DNA from: Xanthomonas sp. F10
Lineage (GTDB): Bacteria > Pseudomonadota > Gammaproteobacteria > Xanthomonadales > Xanthomonadaceae
Assembly (NCBI RefSeq): GCF_014206815.1
Contig: NZ_JACHNP010000001.1
Span: forward strand, 1,578,456 to 1,642,455
Direction of reading: 5' to 3'
Length of the DNA stretch: 64,000 nt
Both the position numbers and the translations under genes were made by a program. Numbering within the stretch: the first letter of the stretch is position 1; each line of letters starts with the position of its first letter. Positions 9,824-26,212 of this stretch are shown piece by piece. The notes beneath the pieces are model-generated. The model was not told the origin of the DNA and did not search any database. It saw only the letters and a list, made by a program, of their open reading frames with translations.

Positions 9824-9897
9824 GGCCTGGTGGCAGAGTGGTTATGCAGCGGACTGCAAATCCGCGTACGCCGGTTCAATTCCGACCCAGGCCTCCA
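9824..9897 (+). tRNA. tRNA-Cys (GCA)
   Basis: A complete 74-nt cloverleaf. The acceptor arms GGCCTGG and CCAGGCC pair, the discriminator base is T and CCA is encoded (9895-9897). The anticodon stem is GCGGA/TCCGC with loop CTGCAAA, giving anticodon GCA at 9856-9858. The T-arm carries GGTTCAATTCC. An intrinsic terminator follows 18 nt later. Confidence 0.97.
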
Positions 9898-9914
9898 TCT
9901 TGTTTCAACGCGTT

Positions 9915-12340: not shown

Positions 12341-13675
12341 ATGACAAAACCCCTGCTGGCGATCGTGGAGGGCAATACCGCGTTGTCGGACCACGTGTCC
12401 ACCTTCTCCCTGCGCCGCGGCCTGGCGTTGACCCGACTGCCCTCGATCGCGCACGCCCGGCATTGGTTGCAACAACAACGCATCGATCTACTGCTGCTCG
12501 ATGGCGATGCCGAGCGCGTGGCGGCAATGGAGCTGATCAACAGCATGGCCGGCCGCGCCGATGCGCGCATCGTGCTGCTGGCCACCGAGGCGCAGATGCC
12601 GAAGTGGCGCGGCTTGGCCGGCGACAGCGTCGAATTGCTGCAGGCCTCCCTGCCGTGGCCGCAGATCGATGCCGAACTTGAGCAGGTCCTGCACCGGCTG
12701 CCACCACGGCGCGGCAAGGCCCGCTTCGGCCTGGTCGGCGAGTGCGCGGCGATCGCGCGCGTGCAGTCCGACATCGCCCGCGTCGCACCGCTGGACATCT
12801 CGGTGTTGATTGCCGGCGAAACCGGCACCGGCAAGGAACTGCTGGCCAAGGCGATCCACGATGCCAGCGGCCGCAGCGGGCGCCTGGTGGCGGTGAATTG
12901 CGGCGCGATTCCGCCGGAACTGCTCGCCAGCCAGCTGTTCGGTCACGAGCGCGGCAGCTTCACCGGCGCCAACCAGCGCCATGCCGGCTATTTCGAACAG
13001 GCGCAGGGCGGCACCCTGTTCCTGGACGAGATCGGCGAGATGGCGCCGGAACTGCAGGTGTACCTGCTGCGCTGTCTGGAAACCGGTGCGATCACCCGGG
13101 TCGGCAGCGATGCGGAGGTCAAGCTGGACGTGCGCATCGTCGCCGCCACCCACCGCGACCTGCTCGGCAGCGCCAGCACCCTGCGCCGCGACCTGTACTA
13201 CCGGCTGTCGCACTACGTCATCGAACTGCCGCCGCTGCGCGAGCGCGGCGACGACGTGCACCTGATCGCCGATGCGTTGCTCGACACGCTCAACCGGCGT
13301 TACGGCACGCGCAAGCAGTTCGACGCCTTCTCGCGCACGGTGCTGGCCCAGCATCGTTGGCCGGGCAATGTGCGCGAACTGTCCAGTGCGGTGGCACGCA
13401 GCTACTACCGTGCCGATGGCGATGCGGTGACGGTCGAGCCCCTGCTGCAGGGCGAGGCGGCGTCGCCGGCGCGCGAGACGCATGGCCAGTACGCAACGAC
13501 GGGCGACGAGGTAACCTTCCGCGTGGGCACGCCGCTGAAGCAGATCGAGCAGGAGATGTTGGCGCGCACCCTGCACGTCAACGGCGGCGACAAGTCCGCG
13601 GCCGCGCGCAGCCTGGGCATCAGCGTGCGCATGATCTACAACCTGATGTCGCGCAGCGATCGCGATTTCCGCTGA
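12341..13675 (+). CDS. Sigma-54-dependent activator (bEBP) with degenerate receiver
   Basis: 444 residues. Residues 1-120 look like a response-regulator receiver with a kept Asp (LLLLDGD, D54). The acidic pair is E-G (AIVEG) and the Lys position is not Lys (LLQASLPW), so classical phosphorylation is doubtful. Residues 130-360 are an AAA+ domain: Walker A GETGTGKE (159-166), sigma-54 loop GSFTGA (205-210, Ser instead of the usual Ala), Walker B TLFLDEIG, arginine-finger region RRDLYYRL and sensor II WPGNVREL. Residues 400-436 form a Fis-type helix-turn-helix (KSAAARSLGISVRMIYNLM). It converges with the eleven-gene glycan cluster, whose promoter is of -24/-12 type, so it is the natural activator of that cluster. 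Confidence 0.9.
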   Translation: MTKPLLAIVEGNTALSDHVSTFSLRRGLALTRLPSIAHARHWLQQQRIDLLLLDGDAERVAAMELINSMAGRADARIVLLATEAQMPKWRGLAGDSVELLQASLPWPQIDAELEQVLHRLPPRRGKARFGLVGECAAIARVQSDIARVAPLDISVLIAGETGTGKELLAKAIHDASGRSGRLVAVNCGAIPPELLASQLFGHERGSFTGANQRHAGYFEQAQGGTLFLDEIGEMAPELQVYLLRCLETGAITRVGSDAEVKLDVRIVAATHRDLLGSASTLRRDLYYRLSHYVIELPPLRERGDDVHLIADALLDTLNRRYGTRKQFDAFSRTVLAQHRWPGNVRELSSAVARSYYRADGDAVTVEPLLQGEAASPARETHGQYATTGDEVTFRVGTPLKQIEQEMLARTLHVNGGDKSAAARSLGISVRMIYNLMSRSDRDFR

Positions 13676-13723
13676 ATCGCCGGCGCACCGCGGCAAGGCG
13701 GCCGCATCCAGAACGCCAGCGCC

Positions 13724-13745
13724 TCGCGGCTGAAGCCGCCCCTAC
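13724..13745. repeat. REP element, single variant copy
   Basis: A 22-bp copy of the REP family seen at 34019, 42036 and 42292 (reverse-orientation core CGGCTGAAGCCGC followed by CCTAC). It has one base change in the GCTCC part. It lies in the 101-bp space where the activator gene and the glycan cluster converge, where it can fold into a short hairpin. Confidence 0.7.
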
Positions 13746-13776
13746 AGCACGCTGCCCGACGTCAACCCGGCAGGCA

Positions 13777-14562
13777 CTACGGAAGACCGCAGGCCGCGCG
13801 CAACTCGTCCTCGATCGGCGCCACCTGCCCCGGCGGCCGCGATTGCGGCCGGCACAGGTAGGTTTCCTCGGCGATGCGCGCGTCCACCGCAAATCCGGCA
13901 CTGCGCAGCATGGCCTCCACGCCGGCGTGGTTCGGTGCCCACCAGTTGGTCGGGTCGTCCGCCAGGCGGTGCTCGATGAAGGCCATCTTCGGCCAGCCCG
14001 GTTCGCACATGAGGCCGCGATCGAGCAAGCCGATGTCGCGCGGTGCCGGATACACCGCCTCGCCCGGCATGGTCATGGTCTGCAGCACCAGGACGCGGCG
14101 GCACAGGCGCCGCACGATGTCCAGCGCCAACAGCGGATGCCGCAGGTGGTACAGCACACCCATCAGCCACACCAGGTCGTACTGCTCGGCTTCGCGCGCC
14201 AGATCGTACAGCTGCATCTGCCGGAACCGCACGCGCCGCTCCAGACCGAACTGTTGCGCCGCCCAACGCGCCTGCCGCAGGTAGTGCGGATTCATGTCGA
14301 TCGCCACCACCTCGGCGCCGCGCCTGGCCAGCTCGAAGCTGTAGAAGCCGGCGTTGCAGCCGATGTCCAGCACCCGCCAGCCCTGCAGATCGGCCGGGAT
14401 ATGTGCGGCCATCTGCCGCCACTTGCAGGCCGGGAAGTCGCCGTACGGATGCGCCGGCAAGGTCTGGCGGCCATCTGGCAGGTGCAGGTTGTGGAACCAC
14501 GGCCCCAGCGCCTGGATCGGGTCGGCGGGATCGGCGGACGGAACGGCGGAGTGCATGGACAA
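13777..14562 (-). CDS. SAM-dependent methyltransferase (CmoB-like, TIGR04290-type)
   Basis: 261 residues, last gene of the glycan cluster. The SAM-binding motif VLDIGCNAGFYSFELARRGA is followed by VVAIDMNPHYLRQARWA, and YDLVWLMGVLYHLRHP is typical of the class I fold. Overall it resembles tRNA (mo5U34)-methyltransferase relatives that occur in glycan clusters (I believe TIGR04290, Rta_06860 family). TMTMPGEAVYPAP and GWPKMAFIEHRLADDPTNWW look like substrate-pocket segments specific to that subgroup. A sugar or glycan hydroxyl is the likely acceptor; this is inference from context. It is separated by 30 bp from the upstream small-protein gene. Confidence 0.8.
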   Translation of the reverse strand: MSMHSAVPSADPADPIQALGPWFHNLHLPDGRQTLPAHPYGDFPACKWRQMAAHIPADLQGWRVLDIGCNAGFYSFELARRGAEVVAIDMNPHYLRQARWAAQQFGLERRVRFRQMQLYDLAREAEQYDLVWLMGVLYHLRHPLLALDIVRRLCRRVLVLQTMTMPGEAVYPAPRDIGLLDRGLMCEPGWPKMAFIEHRLADDPTNWWAPNHAGVEAMLRSAGFAVDARIAEETYLCRPQSRPPGQVAPIEDELRAACGLP

Positions 14563-14592
14563 ACCCTCCCGGGAAACGTGGCGTCCCGCGCT

Positions 14593-14865
14593 TCAGCGGT
14601 TGACCAACTTGAAGAAGCGGCTCTGGCTGCCATCGCTGGTCTTCTCCTGGTACAGGAAGGCCAGTTCCTCTTCTTCGAACTTGTCGAAGAAGTCGTCCCA
14701 GCTGATCTCCTCCAGCGCCGCATCGTCGCGGAACAGGATGCGCAGCACGCCGGCGTCCTCATCGGCTTCGGTGCCGCGCACGCTGGCCGGGCGGCCGCCG
14801 CGGGCCTCGGCCCAGCGGCGGATTTCATCGTGATCGGTGGTGGTCCTGGCGTCATGCGAGGGCAT
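14593..14865 (-). CDS. Small acidic protein of the glycan cluster
   Basis: 90 residues from the ATG at 14865, which has AGGAG 8 bp upstream. The longer frame to 14925 adds only a Pro-rich leader lying inside the upstream gene. The sequence has an N-terminal DHDEIRRWAEARGGRPA segment, a central GVLRILF, and a C-terminal EISWDDFFDKFEEEELAFLYQ ending in RFFKLVNR. Proteins of this shape are often labelled 1,4-alpha-glucan branching enzyme in databases, a label that does not fit their size. They are a small soluble family of unknown role. The start overlaps the upstream glycosyltransferase by 14 nt, so it is translationally coupled to the cluster. Confidence 0.75.
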   Translation of the reverse strand: MPSHDARTTTDHDEIRRWAEARGGRPASVRGTEADEDAGVLRILFRDDAALEEISWDDFFDKFEEEELAFLYQEKTSDGSQSRFFKLVNR

Positions 14866-15970
14866 GGGGAGCGCTCCTGGCGGGGGTGGACGTGGTGGCC
14901 GCATCGGCGACGCGGTCGAGGGCATCGTGCAGGGTCTGCGCGCGATGCGCGGCGGTGTGTTCGGCGAGCACGCGGCGGCGCCCTGCCTCGCCGATCGCCA
15001 GGCGCTGCGCCTCGGGCAGGTCGCGGATCCAGCCCAGCACCTCGGACGTGCGCCGCGCGATCAGGATGTCCTTGCCGGGCGCGAACAGCGTCTCCAGCCC
15101 GTCCCATGCATCGGAAATGATCGGGGTGGCGCAGGCCGCCGCTTCGAACAGGCGCACGCTCGGCGACCAGCCCGCCAGCACCATGTCGGCGCGGGTCAGA
15201 TTGAGGGTGAAGCGCTGTTGGTTGTAGAAGGCGCCGTGCTGCGCCGGCGGCAGGTGCTCGCAGCGTTGCACGTTGTCCGGCCAGACCAGATGCGGCGGAT
15301 ACAGGGGGCCGGCGACCACGAAACGGCCCTGCGGCCAAGCCATCGCCGGCTGCAGCAACAGCCGCTCCAGCGGCGGCTGTCGGTCGTCGCTGTAGGTGCC
15401 CATGTAGCCCAGGTCGTAGCGGTGCGCCTGCGGCTGCGGTCGGTATTGCTCCGGGTCGAACGCGCAGTACAGCGGCACGGCGCGCGGCGCGCCGTAGACG
15501 CGTTCCAACCGTTGCAGGGTCGGGCCGCCGGTGAAGGACAGATACAGGTCGTAGTGCGGAATCAGCGCCGGCGACAGATAGGCGCAGTCGCCGCGCTGCA
15601 GCGCCGCCAGGGTCACCGGCGTGTCGATGTCGTAGAAGCCGACCACGCCGCGCGCGGTCTGCTGTACCCACGCGCCCACCGCGATGCCGTCGGGCACGTA
15701 GGAGCCCACGATCACCAAATCCGCCGCGGCGATCGCCGCGGCGTGCCGATCCTGCAGTTCCTCGAGGCTGGCATACAGCACCGGCGCGCACGGCAACTGC
15801 GCCGGCGGATCCTGGTGCTCGGCGTACCACGGCACGTCGCGCTCCAGGAACACCACGCGGTCGCCACGCGCCTGCAGCGCGGCGATCAGTCCGCGGTAGG
15901 TGGTGGCGTGGCCGTTGCCCCACGACGAGCGCAGGCTCAGGCCGAGGATGACGATGTCGCGCGCGGCCAT
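14852..15970 (-). CDS. CgeB-type glycosyltransferase 3
   Basis: 372 residues. The N-terminal half has LGLSLRSSWGNGHATTYRGL, and the C-terminal half the CgeB/DUF3880-type signature LNLTRADMVLAGWSPSVRLFEAAACATPIISDAWDG. This is the donor-binding Rossmann domain in this GT-B-like family. It is the third of three tandem relatives (also 15970-17061 and 17054-18187), each opening with a SxxxxWxNGxAxxxRG pattern. CgeB-family proteins are thought to glycosylate surface structures. The ATG at 15970 overlaps the upstream stop by one base (TGATG); a GTG three bases earlier is the alternative. The sugar added is unknown. Confidence 0.75.
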   Translation of the reverse strand: MAARDIVILGLSLRSSWGNGHATTYRGLIAALQARGDRVVFLERDVPWYAEHQDPPAQLPCAPVLYASLEELQDRHAAAIAAADLVIVGSYVPDGIAVGAWVQQTARGVVGFYDIDTPVTLAALQRGDCAYLSPALIPHYDLYLSFTGGPTLQRLERVYGAPRAVPLYCAFDPEQYRPQPQAHRYDLGYMGTYSDDRQPPLERLLLQPAMAWPQGRFVVAGPLYPPHLVWPDNVQRCEHLPPAQHGAFYNQQRFTLNLTRADMVLAGWSPSVRLFEAAACATPIISDAWDGLETLFAPGKDILIARRTSEVLGWIRDLPEAQRLAIGEAGRRRVLAEHTAAHRAQTLHDALDRVADAATTSTPARSAPHALA

Positions 15971-17061
15971 CACGCCGCCTCCCGCTGGCGCGCATCCAGC
16001 AGGGCTTCCACCTCGCGCGCGCGGTGCGTGTAGGTGTGATCGCGCAGCAGGCGCTGCCGCGCCCGCGCGCCGATCGCCTGCGCCTGCGCGGCATCGATGC
16101 GTTGCAGGTAGTGCGCCACCTGCTCGCTGTCGTGCGCGACCAGCACCTCGCGCTGCGGTTCGAGGAACGCCTCGATGCCTTCCCAGGCATCGACGATCAG
16201 GCAGGCGCCGGCGCCGGCCGCCTCGAACACCCGGGTCGGCGGCGACCAGCCGAAGCGCGCCATGCTGTCGCGGTTGACGTTGAGCACCATCCGCACGCTG
16301 CAGTTGAAGGCATTGTGGTCGCGCGTGGACACGTGGCCAAGCGTGCGCACGTTGTCCGGCAGCGTATCGTCCCAGCCGCTACCGCCGAGCAGGAAGCGCG
16401 CCTGCGGCAGGCGCCGCGCCGGCTCGAGGAAGAACTGCCGCACCCGTGCTTCGCGGTCCGGCAGCCGATTGCCGAGAAAGCCCAGATCGGCGGCGAACCC
16501 CGCCTGCGCCGGCGCCGGGTGGTGGCTCAGCGGATCCAGCGCGTTGTAGATCGGCACGCACTCGGCTGCGCCCAATGCACGATACGCCGCCACCACGCGC
16601 GGCCCGCCGCCGTAGGTCAGCACCAGGTCGTAGCGCGGGATCTGCGCGCGGAACGGATCCTCGGCATCGGCCTGCACGCGCTCCAGCGTGGCCGGTGCGT
16701 CCACGTCCCAGAACAGCACCTGGGTGCGCGAGGAGCGCAGTCCCAACACCTCGCGCTCCAGGAATGCATCGAACACGCCGACGCCGCTGGCCTTGACCAC
16801 CACGTCGGCGGCGCGTGCCTGCTCCAGTGCGCGCGCCGCGTCGGCTTCGGCCGCCCCGGGATAGACGGTGACCTGGGCCCAGTCCGGATCGTCGATGTCG
16901 CGGTGCTGCTGGCGCCCGAACGCATCGGGTTCGAAGAAGTGGATGCGGTGGCCACGCTGCGCCAGCGCGTGCAGCAGGCCGCGGTAGTAGGTGGCGGCGC
17001 CGTTCCAGTACGAGGACACCAGGCTGGAACCGAAGAAGGCGATGTGCAACGGGCTAGGCAT
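15970..17061 (-). CDS. CgeB-type glycosyltransferase 2
   Basis: 363 residues from the ATG at 17061 (MPSPLHIAFFGSSLV); the longer frame to 17394 reads through the upstream gene in a wrong frame. It carries SYWNGAATYYRGLLHALAQRGH and the C-terminal signature LNVNRDSMARFGWSPPTRVFEAAGAGACLIVDAWEG, parallel to its two neighbours. The middle section YDLVLTYGGGPRVVAAYRALGA matches the equivalent part of the third copy, so the tandem set most likely arose by duplication. The predicted role is one transfer step in the glycan made by the cluster. The start overlaps the upstream gene by 8 nt and the stop overlaps the downstream start. Confidence 0.75.
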   Translation of the reverse strand: MPSPLHIAFFGSSLVSSYWNGAATYYRGLLHALAQRGHRIHFFEPDAFGRQQHRDIDDPDWAQVTVYPGAAEADAARALEQARAADVVVKASGVGVFDAFLEREVLGLRSSRTQVLFWDVDAPATLERVQADAEDPFRAQIPRYDLVLTYGGGPRVVAAYRALGAAECVPIYNALDPLSHHPAPAQAGFAADLGFLGNRLPDREARVRQFFLEPARRLPQARFLLGGSGWDDTLPDNVRTLGHVSTRDHNAFNCSVRMVLNVNRDSMARFGWSPPTRVFEAAGAGACLIVDAWEGIEAFLEPQREVLVAHDSEQVAHYLQRIDAAQAQAIGARARQRLLRDHTYTHRAREVEALLDARQREAA

Positions 17062-18187
17062 GACGGAGGCTCCGTTCGTCGGGAAGCGTGGCGCGCGGGC
17101 TGGGCGCGTCGAGTTCGGCGAGCACCGCCAGCAGTTCGTCGACGCGGTGCGCACAGCTGTGGCGGGTGCGGATGGTATGCAGGCCATGCATGCGCAGCGC
17201 CGCAGCCAGTTCGGCGTCGTGCAGCACGTCGTGCAGGTGGCGCTGCATCTGCGCGCCGTCGCGCGCCACCAGGTAATCGCGCCCGGGCGTAAACAACTGC
17301 TCGACGTCGTCCCACGGCGCACACACCAGCGGGATGCCACAGGCCAGCGCCTCGAACACGCGGATCGTGGGGATGCCGGGCAGCGCGCGCACATACGGCC
17401 GTCGCGGCACGTGCACGGTGACCCGGAAATGCGCGAACGCCTGCGGCGCGCGATGGTTGGGCAGCCAGCCGGCGTAGTCGATGCCGGCCTCGGCCAGCGC
17501 CTGCAAGGCCTGTGGCGGATAGCGCACGCCGTGGATGCGGGCGCGCAGGCGCAGCCGCCGTACCGGCTGGATCAGGAACGCGTCCAGTTCCTGCGCGCGC
17601 TCGTCGTCGCCCCAGTTGCCGATCCATAGCAGGTCGCCCTGCTGCGCCTGCCCGAGCTGCGGCTGGAACACGCGCAGATCCGCCGCCTCGTGCCAGGTCC
17701 ACACGCGCCGGCTCCAGCCATGGCGCAGATACTGCTGGCGCACCGCTTCGCCGAAGGCGAGCACGCCGTCGTAGTCGGACAGATCGAACCGCGCCATCTC
17801 GTCGGGGGCGCTGACCGAACGGTGGTGGGTGTCGTGGAACAGCACGCGGCACCCGGCAGGCGCCTCGCGGCCGATCCGCGCGATCAGCGCGGGCGCGTTC
17901 CATTCGTGCACCAGCACCACGTCGGCGCCGTCCAGCACCTGCGCCAGATCCAGCGTGGCCAGGTCGTAGCGCGTGCTGCGCAGCTGCGGAAAGGCATCGG
18001 CGAAGGCCTGCAACGGCGCCTCGCCCTCCTCCGCCTGCAGTTGCGCACGGCTCCAGCTGTCGTGCGGCTCGTACACCGCCAGCGCATGCCCGCGCGCCTG
18101 CAGTTCGGCGACGATGCCACGCAGGAAATGCGCGTTGCCGTGGTTCCAGTCCGACACCAGCGAGTGATAGAACAGCACGAATTTCAT
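17054..18187 (-). CDS. CgeB-type glycosyltransferase 1
   Basis: 377 residues from the ATG at 18187 (MKFVLFYHSLVSDWNHGNAHF). It carries HNDTHHR-like FHDTHHRSVS and FGEAVRQQYLRHG in the middle, and PTIRVFEALACGIPLVCAPWDDVEQLF at the C terminus, the donor-side signature of this family. It is the most divergent of the three tandem CgeB-type genes. The in-frame extension to 19291 is antisense-like translation of the upstream GT4 gene. The start overlaps the GT4 stop by 4 nt (ATGA), so translation is coupled. Confidence 0.75.
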   Translation of the reverse strand: MKFVLFYHSLVSDWNHGNAHFLRGIVAELQARGHALAVYEPHDSWSRAQLQAEEGEAPLQAFADAFPQLRSTRYDLATLDLAQVLDGADVVLVHEWNAPALIARIGREAPAGCRVLFHDTHHRSVSAPDEMARFDLSDYDGVLAFGEAVRQQYLRHGWSRRVWTWHEAADLRVFQPQLGQAQQGDLLWIGNWGDDERAQELDAFLIQPVRRLRLRARIHGVRYPPQALQALAEAGIDYAGWLPNHRAPQAFAHFRVTVHVPRRPYVRALPGIPTIRVFEALACGIPLVCAPWDDVEQLFTPGRDYLVARDGAQMQRHLHDVLHDAELAAALRMHGLHTIRTRHSCAHRVDELLAVLAELDAPSPRATLPDERSLRHA

Positions 18188-19347
18188 GCACCGACTCCGA
18201 TCGAGGAAAGCATGGGGACCGGCGGGCCGGCCCGTCCGGCCGCGCGGGGCGTGCCGCGATGCGCGATCAGCGCCCGATAACGCTGGCGGTAGGCCGCGGC
18301 CATGGCGGTGGCGGTGTAGCGCCGCGCCTGCGCAACCGCGCGCCGGGCCATGCGCTGCCGCAGCAGCGGATCGCCGATCAGGCGCTGCAACTGCGCCGTC
18401 AGCGCCCGTGCGTCGTCCGGCGCGACGTACAGCGCCGCATCGCCCCAGACCTCGCGCAGGCTGGGGATGTCGCCCAGCACCAGGGCGCAGCCGGCCTGCG
18501 CCGCTTCCAGCGCCGACAGCCCGAACGGCTCGTAGCGCGCCGGCAGCGCATACACGCTGGCGCGGGCCATCCAGCGGCGCAGACGCGACGGCGGCAGCTG
18601 GCCCAGCAGCAACGCCGGCGCGATCGGCGCGGTGCCGCCGTCCGGATGCGCCGCTTGCCCGGCGATGCGCAGCGCCCAGGGCAGCTGCGGCGCCACCGCG
18701 GCCAGCGTGCGCAGATTCTTCGCCTCGTCCCACAGCCGCCCTGCCGCCAGCACCAGGGGCCGCTTGGCGCTGGCCGGCACCGGCCGCGACAGCGGCGCGG
18801 CGCCATTGGCGATCACGCTGCACGGCACGTCCAGCGGATACTGCGCGCGCAACGCCGCCAGCATCGCCTGGGTCGGCGCGACCACGTGATCGGCCGCCGC
18901 CAGACCCGCGGCGACCGTGGCGCGGTAGTGATCCCACTCGGGCGGCAGCGCCTCGCCGCGCACCGCCTGCCACCAGGAGCCGACGCAGGAATGCGCGGTC
19001 ATCAGCACCGGCGCAGGCCACGCCAGGGCGCCGTGCGCATAGTCGTTCAGATGCACCACATCCGGGCGCACCTGCGCCGCCAGCGCCTGCAGCCAGCGCC
19101 CGGCCGAGGACACATCGGCCCAGGGATCGTCCATCCACAGCAGCCGGTAGCCGCTGGCATGCAGGCGCAGCCCCTGGATCGCCGCGGCCTCGCGCCACTG
19201 CGCCGGCGTCGGGGTCGCGCCCATCGTCGCCAGTTCCACGCGGTCGCCCTGCGCGGTCAGCACGCGGCACAGGCTCAGCGCGTACTGCCACACGCCGCCG
19301 ACGGTGTCGGCGGTCATCAGGATCCGCAGCGGACGCTCAGCGTCCAT
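18184..19347 (-). CDS. GT4-family glycosyltransferase
   Basis: 387 residues. The N-terminal acceptor domain starts ILMTADTVGGVWQYALSL, the glycine-rich opening usual in GT4 enzymes. The C-terminal domain has PLVLAAGRLWDEAKNLRTL and the retaining-GT4 E-x7-E motif in YEPFGLSALEAAQAG. These enzymes transfer a sugar from a nucleotide donor with retention of configuration. The ATG at 19347 is used; an ATG at 19356 is equally in frame and adds three residues. It overlaps the upstream oxidoreductase gene by 11 nt. Confidence 0.85.
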   Translation of the reverse strand: MDAERPLRILMTADTVGGVWQYALSLCRVLTAQGDRVELATMGATPTPAQWREAAAIQGLRLHASGYRLLWMDDPWADVSSAGRWLQALAAQVRPDVVHLNDYAHGALAWPAPVLMTAHSCVGSWWQAVRGEALPPEWDHYRATVAAGLAAADHVVAPTQAMLAALRAQYPLDVPCSVIANGAAPLSRPVPASAKRPLVLAAGRLWDEAKNLRTLAAVAPQLPWALRIAGQAAHPDGGTAPIAPALLLGQLPPSRLRRWMARASVYALPARYEPFGLSALEAAQAGCALVLGDIPSLREVWGDAALYVAPDDARALTAQLQRLIGDPLLRQRMARRAVAQARRYTATAMAAAYRQRYRALIAHRGTPRAAGRAGPPVPMLSSIGVGA

Positions 19348-20350
19348 AGAGCGCATCCACCGTGCGAGCGACCTCGAGCAGGTGCAGCGCCGCCGGGTCG
19401 AAGCCGGGGTCGGCGCCCAGGCGCTCGGCCCAGTCCAGCAAGGCGCGGCCGCCCCAGGCGTCCGGTGGCGAGGCCAGGCGCTCGCAGCGTGTGCCGTCGA
19501 AGCGGTCCACGGTGAAGTCGAAGAACGAGCCGTCGACATTGCGCAGCGCCGCGCCGCCACCGGTGCCGTACACATGCGCCTGGATCACCGCATCGCAGCC
19601 GGCCGGCAGGCGCCAGGAACAGGCCATGCGCACGCTGGCGCCGTTGTCCATGCGCCACTGCGCGCTGGCGTAGTCCTCCACCTGCTGCACCGGCCGGGTC
19701 AGTTGCCGGCCTTGCGCGTACAGCGCCGCCTGCAGCTCGTGATGGCCGCCGCTGCCGGTCAGCCACATCGCCAGATCCAGCAGATGGATGCCCAGGTCCA
19801 TCACGCAACCGCCGCCGGAACGGGCGATGTCGTAGAACCAGTCCTTGTCCGGGCCGTAGGCGTTGTGGAACAGCAGGTCGATCGCGAACACCTCGCCCAG
19901 TGCGCCCTGCGCGATCTGCTCGCGCAGCGTCGCCATGCCCTTGGCGAAGCGGTAGCTGAAATCCACCGCGAGCAGGCGGTCGTGGCGTTGCGCCAGCGCC
20001 AGCACCTGCTCGGCTTCGGCGGCGGTGCGGGTCAGCGGCTTCTGGCAGAACACCGCCAGGCCGCGCTGCAGGGCCGCGGCGGCCTGCGCGGCGTGCGCGC
20101 CACTGGGCGTGGCGATGACCACGCCGTCCAGGTCCTCGCGCGCCAGCAGCGCCTCCAGGTCAGGCAGCAGGTCGGCGGCCGGTGCGTCCTGGCGTGCGTC
20201 GAGCAGTGCCGTCGCGCTGGCATCGGCGATCGCCACCACCTGGCCCAGTCCGCTGTCGGCCAGGGCGCGCATGCGCGCACGGCCGATCCAGCCGACGCCG
20301 AGGAACCCCAGCCGCGGCGCACGCCAACGCGATTGCGCCCACGCGTTCAT
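19337..20350 (-). CDS. Gfo/Idh/MocA-type sugar oxidoreductase
   Basis: 337 residues. The N-terminal NAD(P)-binding site is LGFLGVGWIGRARMRAL. The motif FCQKPLTRTAAEAEQVL corresponds to the EKP motif (here QKP), and GGGCVMDLGIHLLDLAMWL supplies the conserved His-containing catalytic segment. The family oxidises or reduces sugar hydroxyls and nucleotide-sugar keto groups. With the neighbouring dehydrogenase and two epimerases it probably tailors a sugar donor. The glutamate of the usual EKP is replaced by Gln, which may alter substrate range. It overlaps the dehydrogenase gene by 4 nt. Confidence 0.85.
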   Translation of the reverse strand: MNAWAQSRWRAPRLGFLGVGWIGRARMRALADSGLGQVVAIADASATALLDARQDAPAADLLPDLEALLAREDLDGVVIATPSGAHAAQAAAALQRGLAVFCQKPLTRTAAEAEQVLALAQRHDRLLAVDFSYRFAKGMATLREQIAQGALGEVFAIDLLFHNAYGPDKDWFYDIARSGGGCVMDLGIHLLDLAMWLTGSGGHHELQAALYAQGRQLTRPVQQVEDYASAQWRMDNGASVRMACSWRLPAGCDAVIQAHVYGTGGGAALRNVDGSFFDFTVDRFDGTRCERLASPPDAWGGRALLDWAERLGADPGFDPAALHLLEVARTVDALYGR

Positions 20351-21309
20351 GCCAGCACCACGCCTTTGAGGAAGCCCTCGGGGCGCGCCTCCATGTCCGC
20401 GAACGCCTGCGGCAGCCGATCCAGCGGATAGCGGTGGGTCAACAGCGGAAACGGATCCAGGCGCCCGTCGGCGACCGCGTCCACCGCCTCCTGCAGACCA
20501 CGTCGCGCCACCCGCGGATCGCGCTCGTGCGCGTTGACCACGTCCAGGCCGCGCCAGTTCCACTGCTGCATGTCGACCTGGCGCGGGCCGTCCTGGTGGT
20601 AGCCGGCGATGACCAGGCGCCCGCCTTCACTGCACAGCGCGCTGGCGATGTCGAGGGTGACCTGCTCGCCTGCGGCCTCGATCACCCGCAGGCAGCCGCT
20701 GCCGCCGGTGAGTTCGTGCACCGCGCCGATCGCCGCGTACCGATCCTCGGTGGCCAGCGTGGCGCTGGCGCCGCACTGGCGCGCGATCTGCAGCGCGTAC
20801 TCACGCCGCGACAGCGCGATCACCTGCGCGCCGAGCCCGGTGGCCAACTGGATCAGCAACGCACCGATGAAGCCGACGCCGACCACTGCGACGGTATGGC
20901 CCGGCTGGATGTCGCTGCGGCGCAGGATGTTCATCGCGCAGGCCAGCGGCTCGCCGGGCAGATCGCGGCCGGACAGCGACGGCGGCAAGCGCACCAGCGC
21001 GTCGGGTTCGGCCAGGTCGTACTCGGCATAGGCGCGGCCGGACAGCAGCACGACGCGGTCGCCCGGCGCCCATTCGCGGACGTCGGCGCCGACCGCGTCG
21101 ACCTCGCCCCAGCCTTCGTGGCCCGGCGCACCGGGCTCGAACGGATAGGCGAACCATGGCCGGCCGGCCCATACCGGCAGATTGGACGCACACACGCCGC
21201 AGCCATGCAGGCGCACCCGCACCTGCTGCGGCGCGGGTTCGGGGCGTGGCTGGCGCTGGGCGACGATGCGGCCCGGGCCTTCGAAGACGGCGGCATGCAT
21301 GCTGTTCAT
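20347..21309 (-). CDS. Zinc-type medium-chain alcohol/sugar dehydrogenase
   Basis: 320 residues from the ATG at 21309. Catalytic-zinc residues are seen in GCGVCASNLP (Cys) and PGHEGWGEVDAVG (the GHE motif). The cofactor-binding motif is VAVVGVGFIGALLIQLA. There is no four-Cys structural-zinc lobe, which gives it a short length for the family. It could be a sorbitol/threonine-dehydrogenase-like enzyme acting on a sugar or a nucleotide sugar. It overlaps the fusion gene by 4 nt upstream and the Gfo gene by 4 nt downstream. Confidence 0.8.
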   Translation of the reverse strand: MNSMHAAVFEGPGRIVAQRQPRPEPAPQQVRVRLHGCGVCASNLPVWAGRPWFAYPFEPGAPGHEGWGEVDAVGADVREWAPGDRVVLLSGRAYAEYDLAEPDALVRLPPSLSGRDLPGEPLACAMNILRRSDIQPGHTVAVVGVGFIGALLIQLATGLGAQVIALSRREYALQIARQCGASATLATEDRYAAIGAVHELTGGSGCLRVIEAAGEQVTLDIASALCSEGGRLVIAGYHQDGPRQVDMQQWNWRGLDVVNAHERDPRVARRGLQEAVDAVADGRLDPFPLLTHRYPLDRLPQAFADMEARPEGFLKGVVLA

Positions 21310-23426
21310 GCGGCGTGGATCCTCCGTTGCGGTGGGGAAACAGGTGCGGCGCGCTCGGCCTGCGTGTGCAGCCAGCGGTGCAGCCGCGTGATGCCGGCAT
21401 CGGCGCCGACGCGAGGCGACCAGCCGGTGGCCGCGGCGAAGGCGCGGGTGTCGGAGACGTAGTAGCGCTGGTCGCCGACCCGCGGCGCGGCATGCGCCAG
21501 TTCCAGGCGATGGCCGACCAGGACCTCGATCCGCCGCAGCACCTCGCGCAGGCTGGCGGCATTGGCCGGCCCGCCGCCCATGTTGAACGCCCGCCCGGAC
21601 AGCCGCGGCATCTGCGCCTGGCACTGCAGGAACGCCTCCACCAGGTCGTCGACGAACAGCAGGTCGCGGACCTGGCGGCCATCGCCGTACACGGTGATCG
21701 GCTGCTGCTGCAACGCGCGGATCAGGAAGTGCGCGACCCAGCCCTGGTCCTCGTTGCCGCACTGGTGCGGGCCATAGATGCAGCTCATCCGCAGCACCAC
21801 CGCCTGCAGGCCGAAGCTGCGCGCATAATCCAGCACATACTGGTCGGCACCGCCCTTGGAGCAGCCGTAGGGGCTGTGGAAATCCAGCGCGCGGCGCTCG
21901 TCGATGCCGCGCGCGCGCAGCAGCGGATCGCTGGGCTGGTAGCGCTGCGCGTCGGCTTCCAGCGGCACGTCGTCGAGCGCGCCATACACCTTGTTGGTGG
22001 AAGTGAACAGCAGCGGCGGCGGCCGCCGCGCGCAGCGGATCGCATCGAGCACGTTGAAGGTGCCGCGCAGGTTGACCTCGAAGTCGTGCGACGGATCCTC
22101 CAGGCTGGAGGTCACCGCCACCTGCGCGGCCAGGTGGAACACCTGCGCCGCCTGCGCCACCGCATCGCCGAGCAGGTGCCGGTCGCGCACGTCGCCCACC
22201 TCCACGTGCAGGCGTTCGGCGGGATAGTGGCGACGCAGCCATTGCAGGTTGTGCTCCACGCCGGGCCGCGACAGGTTGTCGTAGACGATGACGCGGCGCC
22301 CGCTGTCGAGCAGGCGCGCGGCCAGGTTGGTGCCGATAAAACCGGCGCCACCGGTGATCAGCACTGCATCGGCGCGCGGACGCGACAGCGCACGCACCGG
22401 CGCGCGGCTAGTTGCGCTGGGCGCTGTGGCGAGCGGCTCCTGGGCGACCTCCGGGCGCGGCGCGCGCGACAGGTTGGCGCCGTGCTCGTGGTGCAGCGAC
22501 GCCAATGCCTCGATACCGTCGTAGCCCTGCTCGGCCCACAGCCGGTACAGCAGTTTGGCGCGGCCGCGCTCGTCGCGCAGGCCGAAGTGATAATGGCGCT
22601 CGTCCTCGTGGAAACCGTCCTGGTGGCTGATGCTGCCGTGCAGGTCGCGCGCGGCGTACCAGTACAGCCGCTCCACCGGCGCATCCAGCGTCTCGCGCAA
22701 CTGCCGCACCTGCTCGATCTCGTCGTGGCGCCAGGTCGAGTAACCGGTCTCGCTGAGCCAGACCTGCGGCTGCAACCCGTGCGCGGCGAGCACCGCGCGC
22801 ACCTCGCCGAGGACGTCCGCCCAGGGCCGGCGACGGAAATCCCAGGTGCCGGGGAACCCATGCACGCCGATCGCATCGATATGCGCCAGCGCGCCGCGCC
22901 GCGCCATCAGCGCCAGCCAGTTGGGATCGGTCGGGCACATGCCGCCCAGCAGGGTCTTCTTGCCCAACCGGTGCGCCCAGTGCGCGGCCTGGCCGATCAT
23001 CTCGGCGAAGCGCTGCCAGTCGTGGTCCAGGTGCCAGTCCCAGTCGTTGAGGTTGTTCGGCTCGTTCCACAGCTCGATCCACTCGAAGCCGTCGCCGAAG
23101 CGCCCCACCACCTGGTCGATGAAATCGGCGAAGGCCTTGCTGTCGCGCGGCGGCGACGCGGTGCGCGGCTCCAGCCCCAGCGATGGCGGGGTGTAGCAGA
23201 AGCACGGCAGCACCTCGCAGTGCGCGCTGAGCAGCGGCATCAGCCAGGCATACCAGCGCTCGCCCTCGGCGGTGTGCCAGTCGGCCCAGGAAAACTGGGT
23301 GCGCAGCCGGCGCACGCCGAGCTCGCGCATGTCCCGCAACAGCGCATGCACGGCGTCCTCGTCGCCGATCCGCAACCATTCGATCAGGCCGATCTCGGCC
23401 AGCCGTTCGCGTGCCTGCGCGCTCAT
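21306..23426 (-). CDS. Fused glycoside hydrolase and NAD-dependent sugar epimerase
   Basis: 706 residues from the ATG at 23426. Residues 1-320 resemble clan-A (GH39/GH5-like) glycosidases: acid/base motif WIELWNEPNN (E122) and nucleophile motif WLSETGYS (E226). An Ala/Pro-rich linker covers 320-352. Residues 353-700 are an extended short-chain epimerase: ITGGAGFIGTNLAARLL, DNLSRPGVEHNLQWL, and the catalytic SPYGCSKGG (Y520, K524). This is closest in feel to CDP-paratose-2-epimerase-like enzymes. No signal peptide is present, so the glycosidase half would act in the cytoplasm. No frame break is present at the joint. The gene overlaps its neighbours by 4 nt on both sides. Confidence 0.85.
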   Translation of the reverse strand: MSAQARERLAEIGLIEWLRIGDEDAVHALLRDMRELGVRRLRTQFSWADWHTAEGERWYAWLMPLLSAHCEVLPCFCYTPPSLGLEPRTASPPRDSKAFADFIDQVVGRFGDGFEWIELWNEPNNLNDWDWHLDHDWQRFAEMIGQAAHWAHRLGKKTLLGGMCPTDPNWLALMARRGALAHIDAIGVHGFPGTWDFRRRPWADVLGEVRAVLAAHGLQPQVWLSETGYSTWRHDEIEQVRQLRETLDAPVERLYWYAARDLHGSISHQDGFHEDERHYHFGLRDERGRAKLLYRLWAEQGYDGIEALASLHHEHGANLSRAPRPEVAQEPLATAPSATSRAPVRALSRPRADAVLITGGAGFIGTNLAARLLDSGRRVIVYDNLSRPGVEHNLQWLRRHYPAERLHVEVGDVRDRHLLGDAVAQAAQVFHLAAQVAVTSSLEDPSHDFEVNLRGTFNVLDAIRCARRPPPLLFTSTNKVYGALDDVPLEADAQRYQPSDPLLRARGIDERRALDFHSPYGCSKGGADQYVLDYARSFGLQAVVLRMSCIYGPHQCGNEDQGWVAHFLIRALQQQPITVYGDGRQVRDLLFVDDLVEAFLQCQAQMPRLSGRAFNMGGGPANAASLREVLRRIEVLVGHRLELAHAAPRVGDQRYYVSDTRAFAAATGWSPRVGADAGITRLHRWLHTQAERAAPVSPPQRRIHAA

Positions 23427-24580
23427 CCCTGCAACCCCCGCCGTGCCAGCTCGGCATTGGCCGCTTCGATGCCGTCGGCGGCGGTCTGCTCGCGCAGCCA
23501 CGTCACCAGCTCGCCCAGCCCCTGCTGCAACTCCACCTGCGGCGTATAGCCGATGCGGTCGCGGGCCAGGGAGATGTCGGCGAAGCAGTGCCGGATGTCG
23601 CCCACCCGGTAGTTGCCGGACACCTGCGGCGGCAGGTCGTCGATGCCCATGGCCGCGGCGATGCGCTGCGCCACCTCGTTGATGCTGATCGCCTGGCCGC
23701 TACCGATGTTCAACGCCAGGCCCGCGGCGGAGTCGCTTTCGTAGGCCAGGCGGCAGGCACGGGCGACGTCGCTGACATGCACGAAATCGCGGCGTTGCGC
23801 GCCGTCCTCGAAGATCACCGGCGGTTTGCGGTTGAGCAGCCGCGCCGCGAAGATCGCCAGCACCCCGGTGTAGGGATTGGACAGCGCCTGGCGCGTGCCG
23901 TAGATGTTGAAGAAGCGCAACGCGGTGGTCGGGATCGCATAGGCCTGGCCGACGATCAGGCACAGGCGCTCCTGGTCCAGCTTGGACAGCGCGTATACCG
24001 ACGAGGGTTCCGCCGGCTTGCCCTCGTCGGTCGGCACCGGCTGCAGCGGGCGCCCGTCCACGCTCGGCTCCCACTGCGCACGGCGCAGCTGCGCCAGCGG
24101 CCGTTCGCGCACCGGCACGCGTGTGCCGTCGGCATCGACGTAGGCGCCTTCGCCGTACACGCTCATGCTCGACGCCACCACCAGCCGCTGCACCGGCCGC
24201 TCCACCAAGGCTTCCAGCAGCACCGCGGTGCCGAGGTTGTTGGTGTGGGTGTAGTGGGCGATCTGGTACATGCTCTGGCCCACGCCGACCGCGGCGGCGA
24301 GATGGAACACGCCGTCCACGTCCTGCAGCGCATCGCGCACCGTCGCCGGATCGCAGACGTCGCCGACGATCAGCTCCACCTGCGCGGACAGGTAATCGGG
24401 CCGCGTGGGATTGGCGCCGTGCACCTGCGCGCACAGGTTGTCGAGCACCCGCACCCGGTAGCCCTGCGCCAGCAACTCGTCGGCCAGGTGCGAGCCGACG
24501 AAGCCGGCGCCGCCGGTGATCAGCACGCGCTTGCCGGCGTGCGGACGGCCCGTGCCGCCCCTGAGTTCATGCACAGTCAC
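23423..24580 (-). CDS. dTDP-L-rhamnose 4-epimerase-like SDR enzyme
   Basis: 385 residues. The GTG at 24580 is the preferred start because GGAGGT lies 5 bp upstream. The cofactor motif is VLITGGAGFVGSHLADELL. Family-typical segments are RVLDNLCAQVHG, LAAAVGVGQSMYQIAHY and VVASSMSVYGEG, and the catalytic pair is in SVYALSK (Y196, K200). These match dTDP-L-rhamnose 4-epimerase-type enzymes (giving dTDP-6-deoxy-talose) better than GalE. No rhamnose-synthesis genes lie in this window, so the substrate would have to come from elsewhere on the chromosome. It overlaps the UXS gene by 14 nt. Confidence 0.8.
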   Translation of the reverse strand: MTVHELRGGTGRPHAGKRVLITGGAGFVGSHLADELLAQGYRVRVLDNLCAQVHGANPTRPDYLSAQVELIVGDVCDPATVRDALQDVDGVFHLAAAVGVGQSMYQIAHYTHTNNLGTAVLLEALVERPVQRLVVASSMSVYGEGAYVDADGTRVPVRERPLAQLRRAQWEPSVDGRPLQPVPTDEGKPAEPSSVYALSKLDQERLCLIVGQAYAIPTTALRFFNIYGTRQALSNPYTGVLAIFAARLLNRKPPVIFEDGAQRRDFVHVSDVARACRLAYESDSAAGLALNIGSGQAISINEVAQRIAAAMGIDDLPPQVSGNYRVGDIRHCFADISLARDRIGYTPQVELQQGLGELVTWLREQTAADGIEAANAELARRGLQG

Positions 24581-25574
24581 GTTGCACCTCCAGTTCCGGG
24601 ATGTCGTGCAGATGCGCCTGGAACCAGGCGATGGTGCGGCGCAGGCCGTCGTCCAGCGCCACCCGTGGCTCCCAGCCGAGTTCGCGCCGCGCCAGGCCGA
24701 TGTCCGGGCAGCGCCGGGTCGGGTCGTCCTTGGGCATCGGCCGGCGCACGATGCGCGAGGACGAGCCGGTCAGCGCCAGGATCCGCTGCGCCAGCTCGGC
24801 CACGGTGATCTCGTGCGGATTGCCGAGGTTGACCGGGCCGGTGAAGCCACGCGGGCCGCGCATCAATTGCACGATGCCCTCGACCAGATCGGAGACGTAG
24901 CAGAACGACCGGGTCTGGCTGCCGTCGCCGTACAAGGTCAGCGGCTGCTCGCGCAACGCCTGCACGATCAGGTTGGAGACCACCCGTCCGTCGTCGTTGC
25001 GCATGCGCGGGCCGTAGGTATTGAAGATGCGGCCGACCTTGATGTCGGTGGCGTACAGCCGGTGGTAATCGAAGAACGCCGCTTCGGCGCAGCGCTTGCC
25101 CTCGTCGTAACAGGCGCGCGGCCCGATCGGGCTGACCGCACCGCGATAGTCCTCGCGTTGCGGATGCACCTCCGGCTCGCCGTAGACCTCGCTGGTGGAG
25201 GCCTGGAAGATGGTCGCGCCGTTGCTGCGCGCCACCTCCAACAGGTTGATCGCGCCTTCCAGGCAGGTCTGCAAGGTATGCAGCGGACGCGCCTGGTAAT
25301 GCACCGGCGAAGCGCAGCAGGCCAGGTTGAACACCCAGTCGACCTTGGCTTGGTACGGCTGCACCACGTCGTGGGCCACGAAACGGAAGCGCGGCTGTCC
25401 CAGCAGATGCGCGAGATTGTCCAGCGAGCCGGTCAGCAGGTTGTCCAGCACGGTGACGTCGTAGCCGTCCTCGAGCAGGCGCTCGCACAGATGCGCACCA
25501 ACGAAGCCGGCGCCGCCGGCGACCAGCGCGCGCGGTGGCGCTTGGGTGGTAGGGGAAGCAATTGCGCCATCCAT
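24567..25574 (-). CDS. UDP-glucuronate decarboxylase (UDP-xylose synthase)
   Basis: 335 residues, first gene of the glycan cluster. The cofactor motif is GGAGFVG (20-26). Family-specific segments are VFNLACCASPVHYQ, STSEVYGEPEVHPQ, GPRACYDEGKR (Y156, K160) and GRIFNTYGPRM, all typical of UXS enzymes. These convert UDP-glucuronic acid to UDP-xylose through a 4-keto intermediate in the cytoplasm. Two ATGs are adjacent (25577 and 25574); the second has better spacing from the GAGGAG ribosome-binding site. Transcription from the -24/-12 promoter would leave a leader of about 40 nt. Confidence 0.9.
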   Translation of the reverse strand: MDGAIASPTTQAPPRALVAGGAGFVGAHLCERLLEDGYDVTVLDNLLTGSLDNLAHLLGQPRFRFVAHDVVQPYQAKVDWVFNLACCASPVHYQARPLHTLQTCLEGAINLLEVARSNGATIFQASTSEVYGEPEVHPQREDYRGAVSPIGPRACYDEGKRCAEAAFFDYHRLYATDIKVGRIFNTYGPRMRNDDGRVVSNLIVQALREQPLTLYGDGSQTRSFCYVSDLVEGIVQLMRGPRGFTGPVNLGNPHEITVAELAQRILALTGSSSRIVRRPMPKDDPTRRCPDIGLARRELGWEPRVALDDGLRRTIAWFQAHLHDIPELEVQRDCA

Positions 25575-25627
25575 CATCGACTCCTCGCAGAGGCCGGGCG
25601 TCATCGCCTGGCGTGGGAGAGGTCAGC

Positions 25628-25642
25628 GCAAATGGCGTGCCA
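25628..25642 (-). promoter_or_regulatory. Sigma-54 (-24/-12) promoter of the glycan cluster
   Basis: Read on the minus strand the sequence is TGGCACG-CCAT-TTGC, an exact match to TGGCACG-N4-TTGC with the required GG-N10-GC spacing. The GC lies at 25629-25628, so transcription would start near 25616, about 40 nt before the UXS start codon. Confidence 0.9.
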
Positions 25643-25644
25643 AG

Positions 25645-25668
25645 TGCGCGCGGTACGGGCCGCGCGCA
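25645..25668. promoter_or_regulatory. Dyad abutting the sigma-54 promoter
   Basis: TGCGCGCGG and CCGCGCGCA are exact inverted copies around TACGGG, two bases upstream of the -24 element. The position (about -29 to -52) is too close for a normal enhancer site. A repressor or local DNA-bending site is possible. GC-only dyads arise easily by chance here. Confidence 0.3.
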
Positions 25669-25749
25669 TGCCGATGCGGCGTCCTGTCAGGGTTTGGGCG
25701 CGAATCGTGTCTGCCGCGGCGCACGCACCTTGGCTGCACTCGTGTGGAG

Positions 25750-25761
25750 GGCGTGCACGCC
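25750..25761. promoter_or_regulatory. Candidate enhancer palindrome
   Basis: GGCGTGCACGCC is a perfect 12-bp palindrome about 134-145 bp upstream of the predicted start, inside the usual range for bEBP binding sites. GTCGGCGCCGAC (25876-25887) and ACGCGATCGCGT (25981-25992) are further palindromes. None matches the 12224-12252 dyad. Confidence 0.25.
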
Positions 25762-26038
25762 GCCGTCAGCGGCCCGTGAAACGACGACGCCGCGTTGCAG
25801 CGACCGAGGAAAAATTTGCCAATGCCGCGACGCCGCGCCAGACAACGCGCAAACATGCGAGCCAACGGCGCGACCGTCGGCGCCGACATCGCGCCGCATC
25901 GCCGACGCGTCAGCGCTCGCTGCGCCATGCGCCGTTGGGTGCACGAGCGCCGCGCGGCACGCCATCGGTCATCGTCGGGAACGCGATCGCGTGCGCGGAT
26001 CGCAGGCCTCGGCGTCGCGGCGCCCGAACGCCGGGCAC

Positions 26039-26061
26039 AAAAAAAGAGGCTTGCGCCTCTT
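26039..26061 (-). terminator. Terminator of tRNA-Gly
   Basis: On the minus strand AAGAGGC and GCCTCTT pair around GCAA, followed by a run of T. It is placed 40 nt after the tRNA 3' end. Confidence 0.85.
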
Positions 26062-26100
26062 GGTTTGATCGGCCCTGCCGCGACGGCAGCACCGAGACTC

Positions 26101-26176
<76 letters not shown>

Positions 26177-26212
26177 TTGAGGCCGCGAATTCTACCGGGA
26201 CCACGCAGGCTG

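What the first reader, a model, noticed from the sequence alone, without database searches (positions are those of the whole stretch)
13777..25642. Eleven-gene glycan cluster under a perfect sigma-54 promoter, with its own enhancer-binding protein at the far end
Seen: eleven minus-strand genes, most overlapping by 1-14 nt (UXS, dTDP-rhamnose-4-epimerase-like, GH-epimerase fusion, zinc dehydrogenase, Gfo/Idh, GT4, three CgeB-type GTs, small acidic protein, methyltransferase). Seen: TGGCACG-CCAT-TTGC with GG-N10-GC spacing at 25628-25642. Seen: a bEBP gene (12341-13675) with GSFTGA loop converging on the cluster end. Known: sigma-54 promoters need an activator, and in several bacteria such activators switch on exopolysaccharide or surface-glycan genes. 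Inferred: an inducible, environmentally controlled glycan (with xylose- and 6-deoxyhexose-type donors) whose product I cannot name. No flippase, polymerase or ligase is seen, so the glycan may be short or protein-linked.
Basis: partly seen in the sequence, partly recalled or inferred. Interest (0 to 1): 0.88.

Follow-up and report, generated by a model that had tools for sequence, protein, structure and literature searches.

The report
Sigma-54-controlled xylose-oligosaccharide operon
A Xanthomonas-type chromosome carries an island in which an activator gene sits beside an eleven-gene operon for an unknown xylose-containing sugar compound; the operon belongs to a widespread, seemingly unstudied pathway that looks switched on through sigma-54 in several unrelated bacteria.

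Summary
Eleven packed minus-strand genes (13777-25577) follow a near-consensus -24/-12 element (25642-25628), and an NtrC-type activator gene (12341-13675) converges on their end. The motif alone is no commoner than chance genome-wide, but it is the best conserved stretch upstream of UXS in three species. The activator was found in 4 of 395 family genomes, which are the 4 of 20 genus members carrying the cluster. Outside this genus strong sigma-54 sites precede cluster units in 12 of 138 windows against 4 of 376 control windows, but in 0 of 37 windows of a later sample: recurrent, not universal. The cluster occurs in many phyla; I found no paper on it. None of its 11 genes resembles a flippase, polymerase, ligase or lipid-carrier transferase. 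Two clues: a dehydrogenase pair and a B12 radical-SAM enzyme exclude each other, and inositol-3-phosphate synthase is linked in 24 of 89 loci, suggesting an inositol-cored soluble oligosaccharide; none was found in this family. The '6-deoxyhexose' and 'dTDP-rhamnose epimerase' labels are unsupported. Product, signal and activator-promoter contact are inferred.

The parts
25627..25642 (-). sigma-54 type -24/-12 promoter element, predicted +1 at 25616
   Evidence: variants at nearly the same distance in G012 (L047:16094) and G008 (L048:17513)
25808..25820 (-). AT-rich block GGCAAATTTTTCC, similar but not identical in G012 and G008, about 170 nt upstream of the promoter; candidate enhancer or bending site (tentative)
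   Evidence: alignment; no convincing repeat found
24567..25577 (-). UXS: UDP-glucuronate decarboxylase (UDP-xylose synthase)
23423..24574 (-). SDR nucleotide-sugar epimerase, GalE / UDP-GlcA 4-epimerase-like
21306..23426 (-). fusion: N-terminal clan-A-type glycosidase-like domain (WNEP and SETG motifs) + C-terminal SDR
   Evidence: motif roles recalled
20347..21309 (-). zinc-type dehydrogenase (best NCBIfam model: scyllo-inosose 3-dehydrogenase, far below cut-off); start 21309 or 21300
19337..20350 (-). Gfo/Idh/MocA oxidoreductase (inositol 2-dehydrogenase-like; several solved relatives)
18184..19317 (-). GT4 glycosyltransferase (nearest solved chains 6kih, 3c4q/3c48, PimA)
17054..18187 (-). 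PF13524 (CgeB-type) glycosyltransferase C
15970..17061 (-). PF13524 (CgeB-type) glycosyltransferase B; marker used for the surveys
14852..15970 (-). PF13524 (CgeB-type) glycosyltransferase A
14593..14904 (-). small acidic protein; start 14904 or 14865
   Evidence: dN/dS 0.06 against G012
13777..14556 (-). TIGR04290-family SAM methyltransferase (329 bits, cut-off 300)
12341..13675 (+). NtrC-family enhancer-binding protein: degenerate receiver-like domain, AAA+ domain with GSFTGA, HTH_8
26044..26061 (-). terminator-like hairpin between tRNA-Gly and the cluster
   Evidence: 9 such sites found in 9700-26200, 5.6 expected from shuffles
26101..26176 (-). tRNA-Gly next to pgsA; one edge of a variable interval
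9824..9897 (+). tRNA-Cys; other edge of the interval

Best explanation
The eleven genes form one transcription unit driven by a sigma-54 promoter at 25642-25628. The neighbouring NtrC-type activator (12341-13675), whose receiver domain looks degenerate so that phosphorylation is probably not the switch, is its dedicated activator and came into this Xanthomonas lineage with it. The products build a xylose-containing, methylated oligosaccharide: UXS makes UDP-xylose, the two SDRs supply further nucleotide sugars, the dehydrogenase pair inverts or oxidises a ring carbon, four soluble GT-B glycosyltransferases assemble the chain, and the TIGR04290 enzyme methylates it. As no lipid-carrier transferase, flippase, polymerase or ligase is among the genes, a short soluble (or later exported) oligosaccharide is more likely than a polymer. 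Inositol is the best guess for the acceptor in lineages that link INO1 to the cluster. Shown: gene content, promoter sequence and its conservation, co-occurrence of activator and cluster. Inferred: single transcript, start site, activator binding, donors other than UDP-xylose, product, acceptor and function.
For: The element is the best conserved stretch upstream of UXS, together with the ribosome-binding region, in window, G012 and G008. Activator (E<=1e-120) in 4 of 395 family genomes, cluster marker (GTB, E<=1e-90) in 13; all 4 are cluster genomes (Fisher 7e-7; within the genus 4 of 4 against 0 of 16, 2e-4; relatives are not independent). Outside the genus 12 of 138 windows upstream of cluster units hold a site scoring >=10.7 of 12, against a mean of 0.195 (maximum 2) in 200 permuted patterns and 1 on the antisense strand, and 4 of 376 windows upstream of other ORFs in the same loci (Fisher 6e-5). 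Three of the 12 (G641, G450, G315) had prompted the test; without the six whole-genome loci it is 9 of 130 (p=0.001), and 8 of 130 (p=0.003) if the L084 site inside an antisense coding region also goes. All 12 genes show dN/dS 0.06-0.22 against G012. Plasmid-borne relatives of the activator at about 45% identity include one in B. multivorans lying among glycosyltransferases and a UXS beside a second sigma-54 regulator. Inositol: in the sample INO1 and a histidine phosphatase each lie by the cluster in 11 of 14 loci (one being the source of the queries); in Roseomonas mucosa they overlap with each other and with glycosyltransferase B.
Against: The motif is not enriched genome-wide (46 against 41 reversed). 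G641 and G450 have the promoter without this activator, so another activator must serve there. Of 13 upstream regions (12 from the family, plus G315) 6 have no strong site; in four of these six (L163=L061, L165=L059, L167=L060, L166) a phosphatase gene precedes UXS, and in the three scanned (L059, L060, L061) no site lies before it. 0 of 37 windows in the later sample reach 10.7, one reaches 10. The threshold was set after sites had been listed, though 10, 11 and 12 also exceed their controls. No enhancer repeat found. No INO1 was found in 395 family genomes (no positive control of its own), so inositol would have to be imported here or another acceptor used.
Confidence: 0.62

Rival explanations
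1. The operon makes a cell-surface decoration (LPS side chain, pilin or flagellin glycan, capsule modification) with export and ligation done by genes elsewhere in the genome, as in other sigma-54 regulated surface glycans.
For: Sigma-54 is generally associated with exterior functions (PMC3162934, passages; BerB/RpoN control of a Burkholderia exopolysaccharide, PMC5552954 abstract). In R. etli an O-antigen ligase and a sugar transferase lie about 8 and 13 kb beyond the cluster. The GH domain's nearest solved relative is PslG, which by recall belongs to an exopolysaccharide locus.
Against: No exporter, flippase or ligase family stood out among the 9 recurrent-neighbour representatives scanned with Pfam, except one ABC transporter set in 5 loci; most neighbour sets were not scanned. 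The annotated Roseomonas cassette shows none.
Confidence: 0.33
2. The sigma-54 element is a chance or decaying site and the convergent activator controls something else (its own neighbours or distant genes).
For: Genome-wide motif count equals its control; the activator also neighbours SRAP and Nramp genes in all four genomes; 9 of 13 family clusters do without it.
Against: Conservation of the element amid diverged sequence, low shuffle frequency, co-occurrence in the genus and enrichment at homologous clusters elsewhere.
Confidence: 0.1
3. The cluster is expressed mainly by read-through from the pgsA/tRNA-Gly unit or from internal promoters, with sigma-54 playing a minor role.
For: Same orientation as pgsA-tRNA-Gly. 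The finding of no sigma-70-like site in 9700-26200 is uninformative (0 found, 0.7 expected from shuffles).
Against: A terminator-like hairpin at 26061-26044 follows the tRNA; in G008 the module lies on another contig than pgsA yet keeps the sigma-54 element.
Confidence: 0.08

Closest known systems
BerB/RpoN control of a biofilm exopolysaccharide in Burkholderia cenocepacia (PMC5552954, abstract and outline seen; PMC9684580, listing and start of abstract seen)
   Same: A sigma-54 activator controls glycan production
   Different: BerB acts through berA and binds c-di-GMP (abstract); here the element lies directly before the biosynthetic operon and the ligand is unknown; BerB was not compared by sequence
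General link of sigma-54 to exterior functions (Francke et al. 2011, PMC3162934, eight passages seen)
   Same: Reports associations of sigma-54 with exopolysaccharide, LPS and flagellar genes
   Different: This gene cluster did not appear in the passages seen; the paper was not read whole
NCBIfam TIGR04290 (methyltransferase) and TIGR04295 (B12_rSAM_oligo)
   Same: Window MT exceeds the TIGR04290 cut-off; the L084 relative carries TIGR04295 at 735 bits
   Different: Both are hypothetical equivalogs without assigned chemistry; the window cluster has a dehydrogenase pair instead of the radical-SAM enzyme
Mycothiol first steps (INO1, MshA, phosphatase; pathway recalled)
   Same: In other lineages a linked INO1 (TIGR03450, 556 bits against cut-off 638), a phosphatase, and a GT4 whose nearest solved chains include 3c48/3c4q (MshA by recall) and PimA
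   Different: Extra glycosyltransferases, UXS and methyltransferase; no INO1 found in this family; the GT4 scores only 42 bits against the MshA cut-off of 462

Membership tests
Sigma-54 dependent promoter | GG-N10-GC core with TGGCAYG/TTGC context upstream of a gene, right strand (consensus recalled) | tested here: met
   (11 of 12)
Sigma-54 dependent promoter | Transcription requires RpoN | not testable with these tools
   two Sigma54_DBD genes are present in the genome; no expression data
NtrC-type enhancer-binding protein | Sigma54_activat AAA+ domain, Walker A (GETGTGKE), GAFTGA-type loop, Fis-type HTH | tested here: met
   the loop reads GSFTGA in all three orthologues aligned; whether S is tolerated was not tested
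NtrC-type enhancer-binding protein | Phosphorylatable receiver domain (Asp, Lys, acidic pair) | tested here: inconclusive
   Response_reg E=0.0026 in the window, 3e-9 in G008; the Asp is kept in all three; a 'KP' is visible in G008 but not in window or G012; residue roles recalled
UDP-xylose synthase | Close homology to UXS over nearly the full length | tested here: met
   E=1.5e-103, residues 15-323 of 336; activity not tested
TIGR04290 methyltransferase | Score over curated cut-off | tested here: met
   329.3 against 300
Wzx/Wzy-, ABC- or synthase-dependent polysaccharide locus | Flippase/ABC exporter, polymerase or ligase, lipid-carrier sugar transferase in the locus | tested here: not met
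   no such match among the 11 genes; none annotated in the X. sacchari R1 and R. mucosa cassettes (PLSDB tables are incomplete)
dTDP-rhamnose / 6-deoxyhexose pathway | Rml-type enzymes over curated cut-offs | tested here: not met
   best SDR scores 167, 154 and 125 bits, each below the model's cut-off; the rest of the genome was not searched
Inositol-based glycoside pathway | Inositol-3-phosphate synthase in the genome or cluster | tested here: not met
   0 of 395 family genomes (no positive control); in other lineages linked in 24 of 89 loci of 13 kb or more

The most novel reading that the evidence does not exclude
A cross-phylum, unnamed pathway makes an inositol-cored, xylose-containing, O-methylated soluble oligosaccharide (a stress protectant or signal). 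One step can be done either by a dehydrogenase/Gfo-Idh pair or by a B12 radical-SAM enzyme, which have swapped repeatedly, and the pathway has come under sigma-54 control in a gammaproteobacterial lineage and elsewhere, with one Xanthomonas lineage pairing it with its own activator on a mobile island.
Probability: 0.25. Interest if true: 0.85.

Novelty: new variant of a known kind. Interest (0 to 1): 0.58.

Why it matters
Learning its product would annotate them, and the activator and promoter give a simple genetic handle: delete the activator and look for the missing compound. The exclusive swap between a two-dehydrogenase module and a B12 radical-SAM enzyme (16 against 66 of 89 loci, none with both) is a ready chemical clue.

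Tried and rejected
Motif-only argument for the promoter: rejected, since the reversed control pattern is as frequent. 'Promoter only where the activator is': suggested by the first loci, rejected after G641 and G450. Inositol as acceptor in this family: weakened. dTDP-rhamnose label: rejected. Enhancer repeats: none convincing. Promoter before the phosphatase gene in Lysobacter-type clusters: no site in the three scanned; L166 was not scanned there. Literature: searches showed no paper on this cluster; the few papers listed by 32, 66 and 86 were judged by title and abstract start only. The S. meliloti locus tags were a guess. The annotation table for S. meliloti 1021 pSymB was empty.

Rows dropped and limits: L161, L163, L165 and L167 were left out because their contig lengths equal those of L058, L061, L059 and L060; 8 of the 86 loci gave no usable window; four thresholds were tried. 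One search set aside 14 of 80 loci as under 13 kb. The clustering includes antisense shadow ORFs (G+C-rich DNA), so its neighbour counts are rough; 9 of its representatives were scanned with Pfam. The control windows rest on the same rough ORF set. The tree is a quick tree with 33 open forks of 86; its 11 (dehydrogenase/radical-SAM), 8 (sigma-54) and 7 (INO1) changes are minimum counts on that tree.
Full report
1. What is there. Eleven genes lie on the minus strand between 25577 and 13777 in the order UXS, GalE-like SDR, glycosidase-SDR fusion, zinc dehydrogenase, Gfo/Idh, GT4, three PF13524 (CgeB-type) glycosyltransferases, a small acidic protein and a TIGR04290 methyltransferase. Eight of ten junctions overlap by 1-14 nt, two are gaps of 19 and 36 nt. 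An NtrC-type activator on the plus strand (12341-13675) converges on the end of the cluster. The same arrangement with the activator is annotated in X. sacchari R1, whose glycosyltransferase B is 96% and activator 86% identical. The genes show dN/dS 0.06-0.22 against G012 and 0.18-0.37 against G008.

2. The promoter. TGGCACGCCATTTGC at 25642-25628 has the GG-N10-GC core and 11 of 12 consensus positions, 51 bases before the ATG at 25577. As a motif it is not remarkable in this genome: 46 one-mismatch matches against 41 for the reversed pattern. Place and conservation make the case. In the 300 bases upstream of UXS 2 of 2000 shuffles do as well. In G012 and G008 the element and the ribosome-binding region stand out while most of the DNA further upstream has diverged. 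A terminator-like hairpin lies between the tRNA-Gly gene and the cluster; the absence of sigma-70-like sites in the scan is uninformative. The genome has two Sigma54_DBD genes.

3. The activator. It has a receiver-like N-terminus (Response_reg E=0.0026 in the window, 3e-9 in G008; the receiver lysine seems lost in window and G012), a full AAA+ domain with GSFTGA and a Fis-type HTH. At E<=1e-120 it was found in 4 of 395 family genomes: own, G456 (same species), G012 and G008. The cluster marker was found in 13 of 395: these four plus nine genomes of other genera. The other 16 of 20 genus members have neither at these thresholds. Apart from X. sacchari R1, its plasmid-borne relatives are under 60% identical, most of them in Burkholderia; one of these, in B. 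multivorans, lies among glycosyltransferases and a UDP-glucuronic acid decarboxylase next to a second sigma-54 regulator.

4. Is sigma-54 control particular to Xanthomonas? No. In 138 windows upstream of cluster transcription units from 78 loci outside the genus, 12 hold a site scoring at least 10.7 of 12; 200 column-permuted patterns give 0.195 on average (maximum 2), the antisense strand 1. At 10 the figures are 13 against 1.71 (maximum 8, antisense 3), at 11 they are 8 against 0.13, at 12 they are 1 against 0. Background in the 80 named loci is 37 sites in 2.88 Mb of both strands, so 0.69 would be expected. Windows upstream of other ORFs in the same loci give 4 of 376 (Fisher 6e-5). Three of the twelve (G641, G450, G315) had been seen and prompted the test; without the six whole-genome loci it is 9 of 130 (p=0.001), and 8 of 130 (p=0.003) without the L084 site, which lies in an antisense coding region. 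The twelve windows come from 11 loci: G641, G450 (same family), G315, Steroidobacter agaridevorans (L128), a gammaproteobacterial MAG (L063), Proteobacteria 005FR1 (L078), two acidobacterial MAGs (L094 before the methyltransferase; L108 before the epimerase, 12 of 12, and before the methyltransferase), a myxococcal MAG (L122, before GT4) and, less convincingly, two cyanobacterial records (L084; L095 before glycosyltransferase A). On a quick tree of 89 marker proteins 8 of 13 carriers, the three Xanthomonas included, fall among 17 rows grouped at support 90, and the trait changes at least 8 times in all. So the promoter may predate the pairing with this activator (inference). It is not universal: 0 of 37 windows in a later sample, and 6 of 13 upstream regions lack it.

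5. Where the island sits. In the window, G012 and X. sacchari R1 the module (Nramp, SRAP, activator, cluster) lies between tRNA-Gly next to pgsA and tRNA-Cys; G456 shows the tRNA-Gly side, its fetched stretch not reaching a tRNA-Cys. In the 16 other genus members the roughly 10 kb beyond pgsA hold no match to the module except a short Nramp match in G005, and the tRNA-Cys distance and orientation vary, with extra tRNA-Gly copies in some. In G008 the same module lies on another contig than pgsA. This looks like an integration hot spot and a module that moves as a unit (inference; no integrase was sought).

6. What the pathway may be. The set recurs in many phyla with much the same order. Three clues bear on chemistry. 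First, the dehydrogenase/Gfo-Idh pair and a TIGR04295 B12 radical-SAM enzyme exclude each other: of 66 loci 8 have the radical-SAM enzyme, 51 the dehydrogenase, none both, 7 neither (Fisher 1.1e-6); in 14 further loci it is 8 against 6, none both; over all 89 loci 16 against 66, none both. In many of them the radical-SAM gene stands just before GT4, where the pair stands elsewhere. On the tree the state changes at least 11 times; two supported sisters, L212 (Roseomonas) and L219, differ. An oxidation-reduction pair replaced by a radical enzyme points to inversion at an unactivated ring carbon (inference). Second, inositol-3-phosphate synthase is linked in 12 of 80 loci and 11 of 14 (one of them the source of the query), over all in 24 of 89, 17 of these also with a histidine phosphatase; in Roseomonas mucosa the two overlap head to tail with glycosyltransferase B. 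Third, the nearest solved chains of the GT4 enzyme include PimA and, by recall, MshA, both acting on inositol acceptors, though the family is broad. Together these suggest an inositol-cored oligosaccharide. Against it, no INO1 was found in 395 family genomes. In S. meliloti the cluster lies within about 10 kb of a 'nutrient deprivation-induced protein' and a BON-domain gene, which would fit a protectant role but does not show it.

7. What is known. Sigma-54 control of glycans and exterior functions is established (PMC3162934 passages; PMC5552954 abstract). NCBIfam has hypothetical models for two of the enzymes. I found no paper on the cluster in searches of an open-access library. I call it a new variant of a known kind: the regulation is of a known kind, the biosynthetic system is undescribed as far as I could see, and the pairing with this activator was seen in one Xanthomonas lineage only.

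Noticed in passing
window 9824-26176; L189-L205: The interval between tRNA-Gly (pgsA side) and tRNA-Cys varies across the genus in length, tRNA orientation and extra tRNA-Gly copies; it looks like an integration hot spot. G005 keeps a short Nramp match there.
   Followed up: partly
window 10091-12111: An Nramp-type metal transporter and an SRAP (SOS-response peptidase) gene accompany the activator and cluster in all four genomes of the genus that have them, and in X. sacchari R1.
   Followed up: partly
L080, L084, L086, L095, L117, L124, L132, L135, L219-L226: A TIGR04295-type B12 radical-SAM enzyme is present where the zinc dehydrogenase and Gfo/Idh pair is missing; never both in one of 89 loci.
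   Followed up: yes
L212:12293-14004; L146:5527-7226; L217-L224, L226: Inositol-3-phosphate synthase and a histidine phosphatase lie by the cluster in many lineages; no such synthase was found in 395 genomes of the window's family.
   Followed up: yes
L211:5234-7993: In Burkholderia multivorans two adjacent sigma-54 regulators lie inside a different glycan region with a UXS; one is about 46% identical to the window's activator over its AAA+ part.
   Followed up: partly
L051 (G315) and L128: Two clusters from different genomes share not only the sigma-54 element but also the bases after it (TTGCTACTTACCTC).
   Followed up: no
window 14593-14904: The small acidic protein is under strong constraint and has relatives near other clusters, sometimes on the opposite strand, yet matches no Pfam or NCBIfam model.
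   Followed up: no
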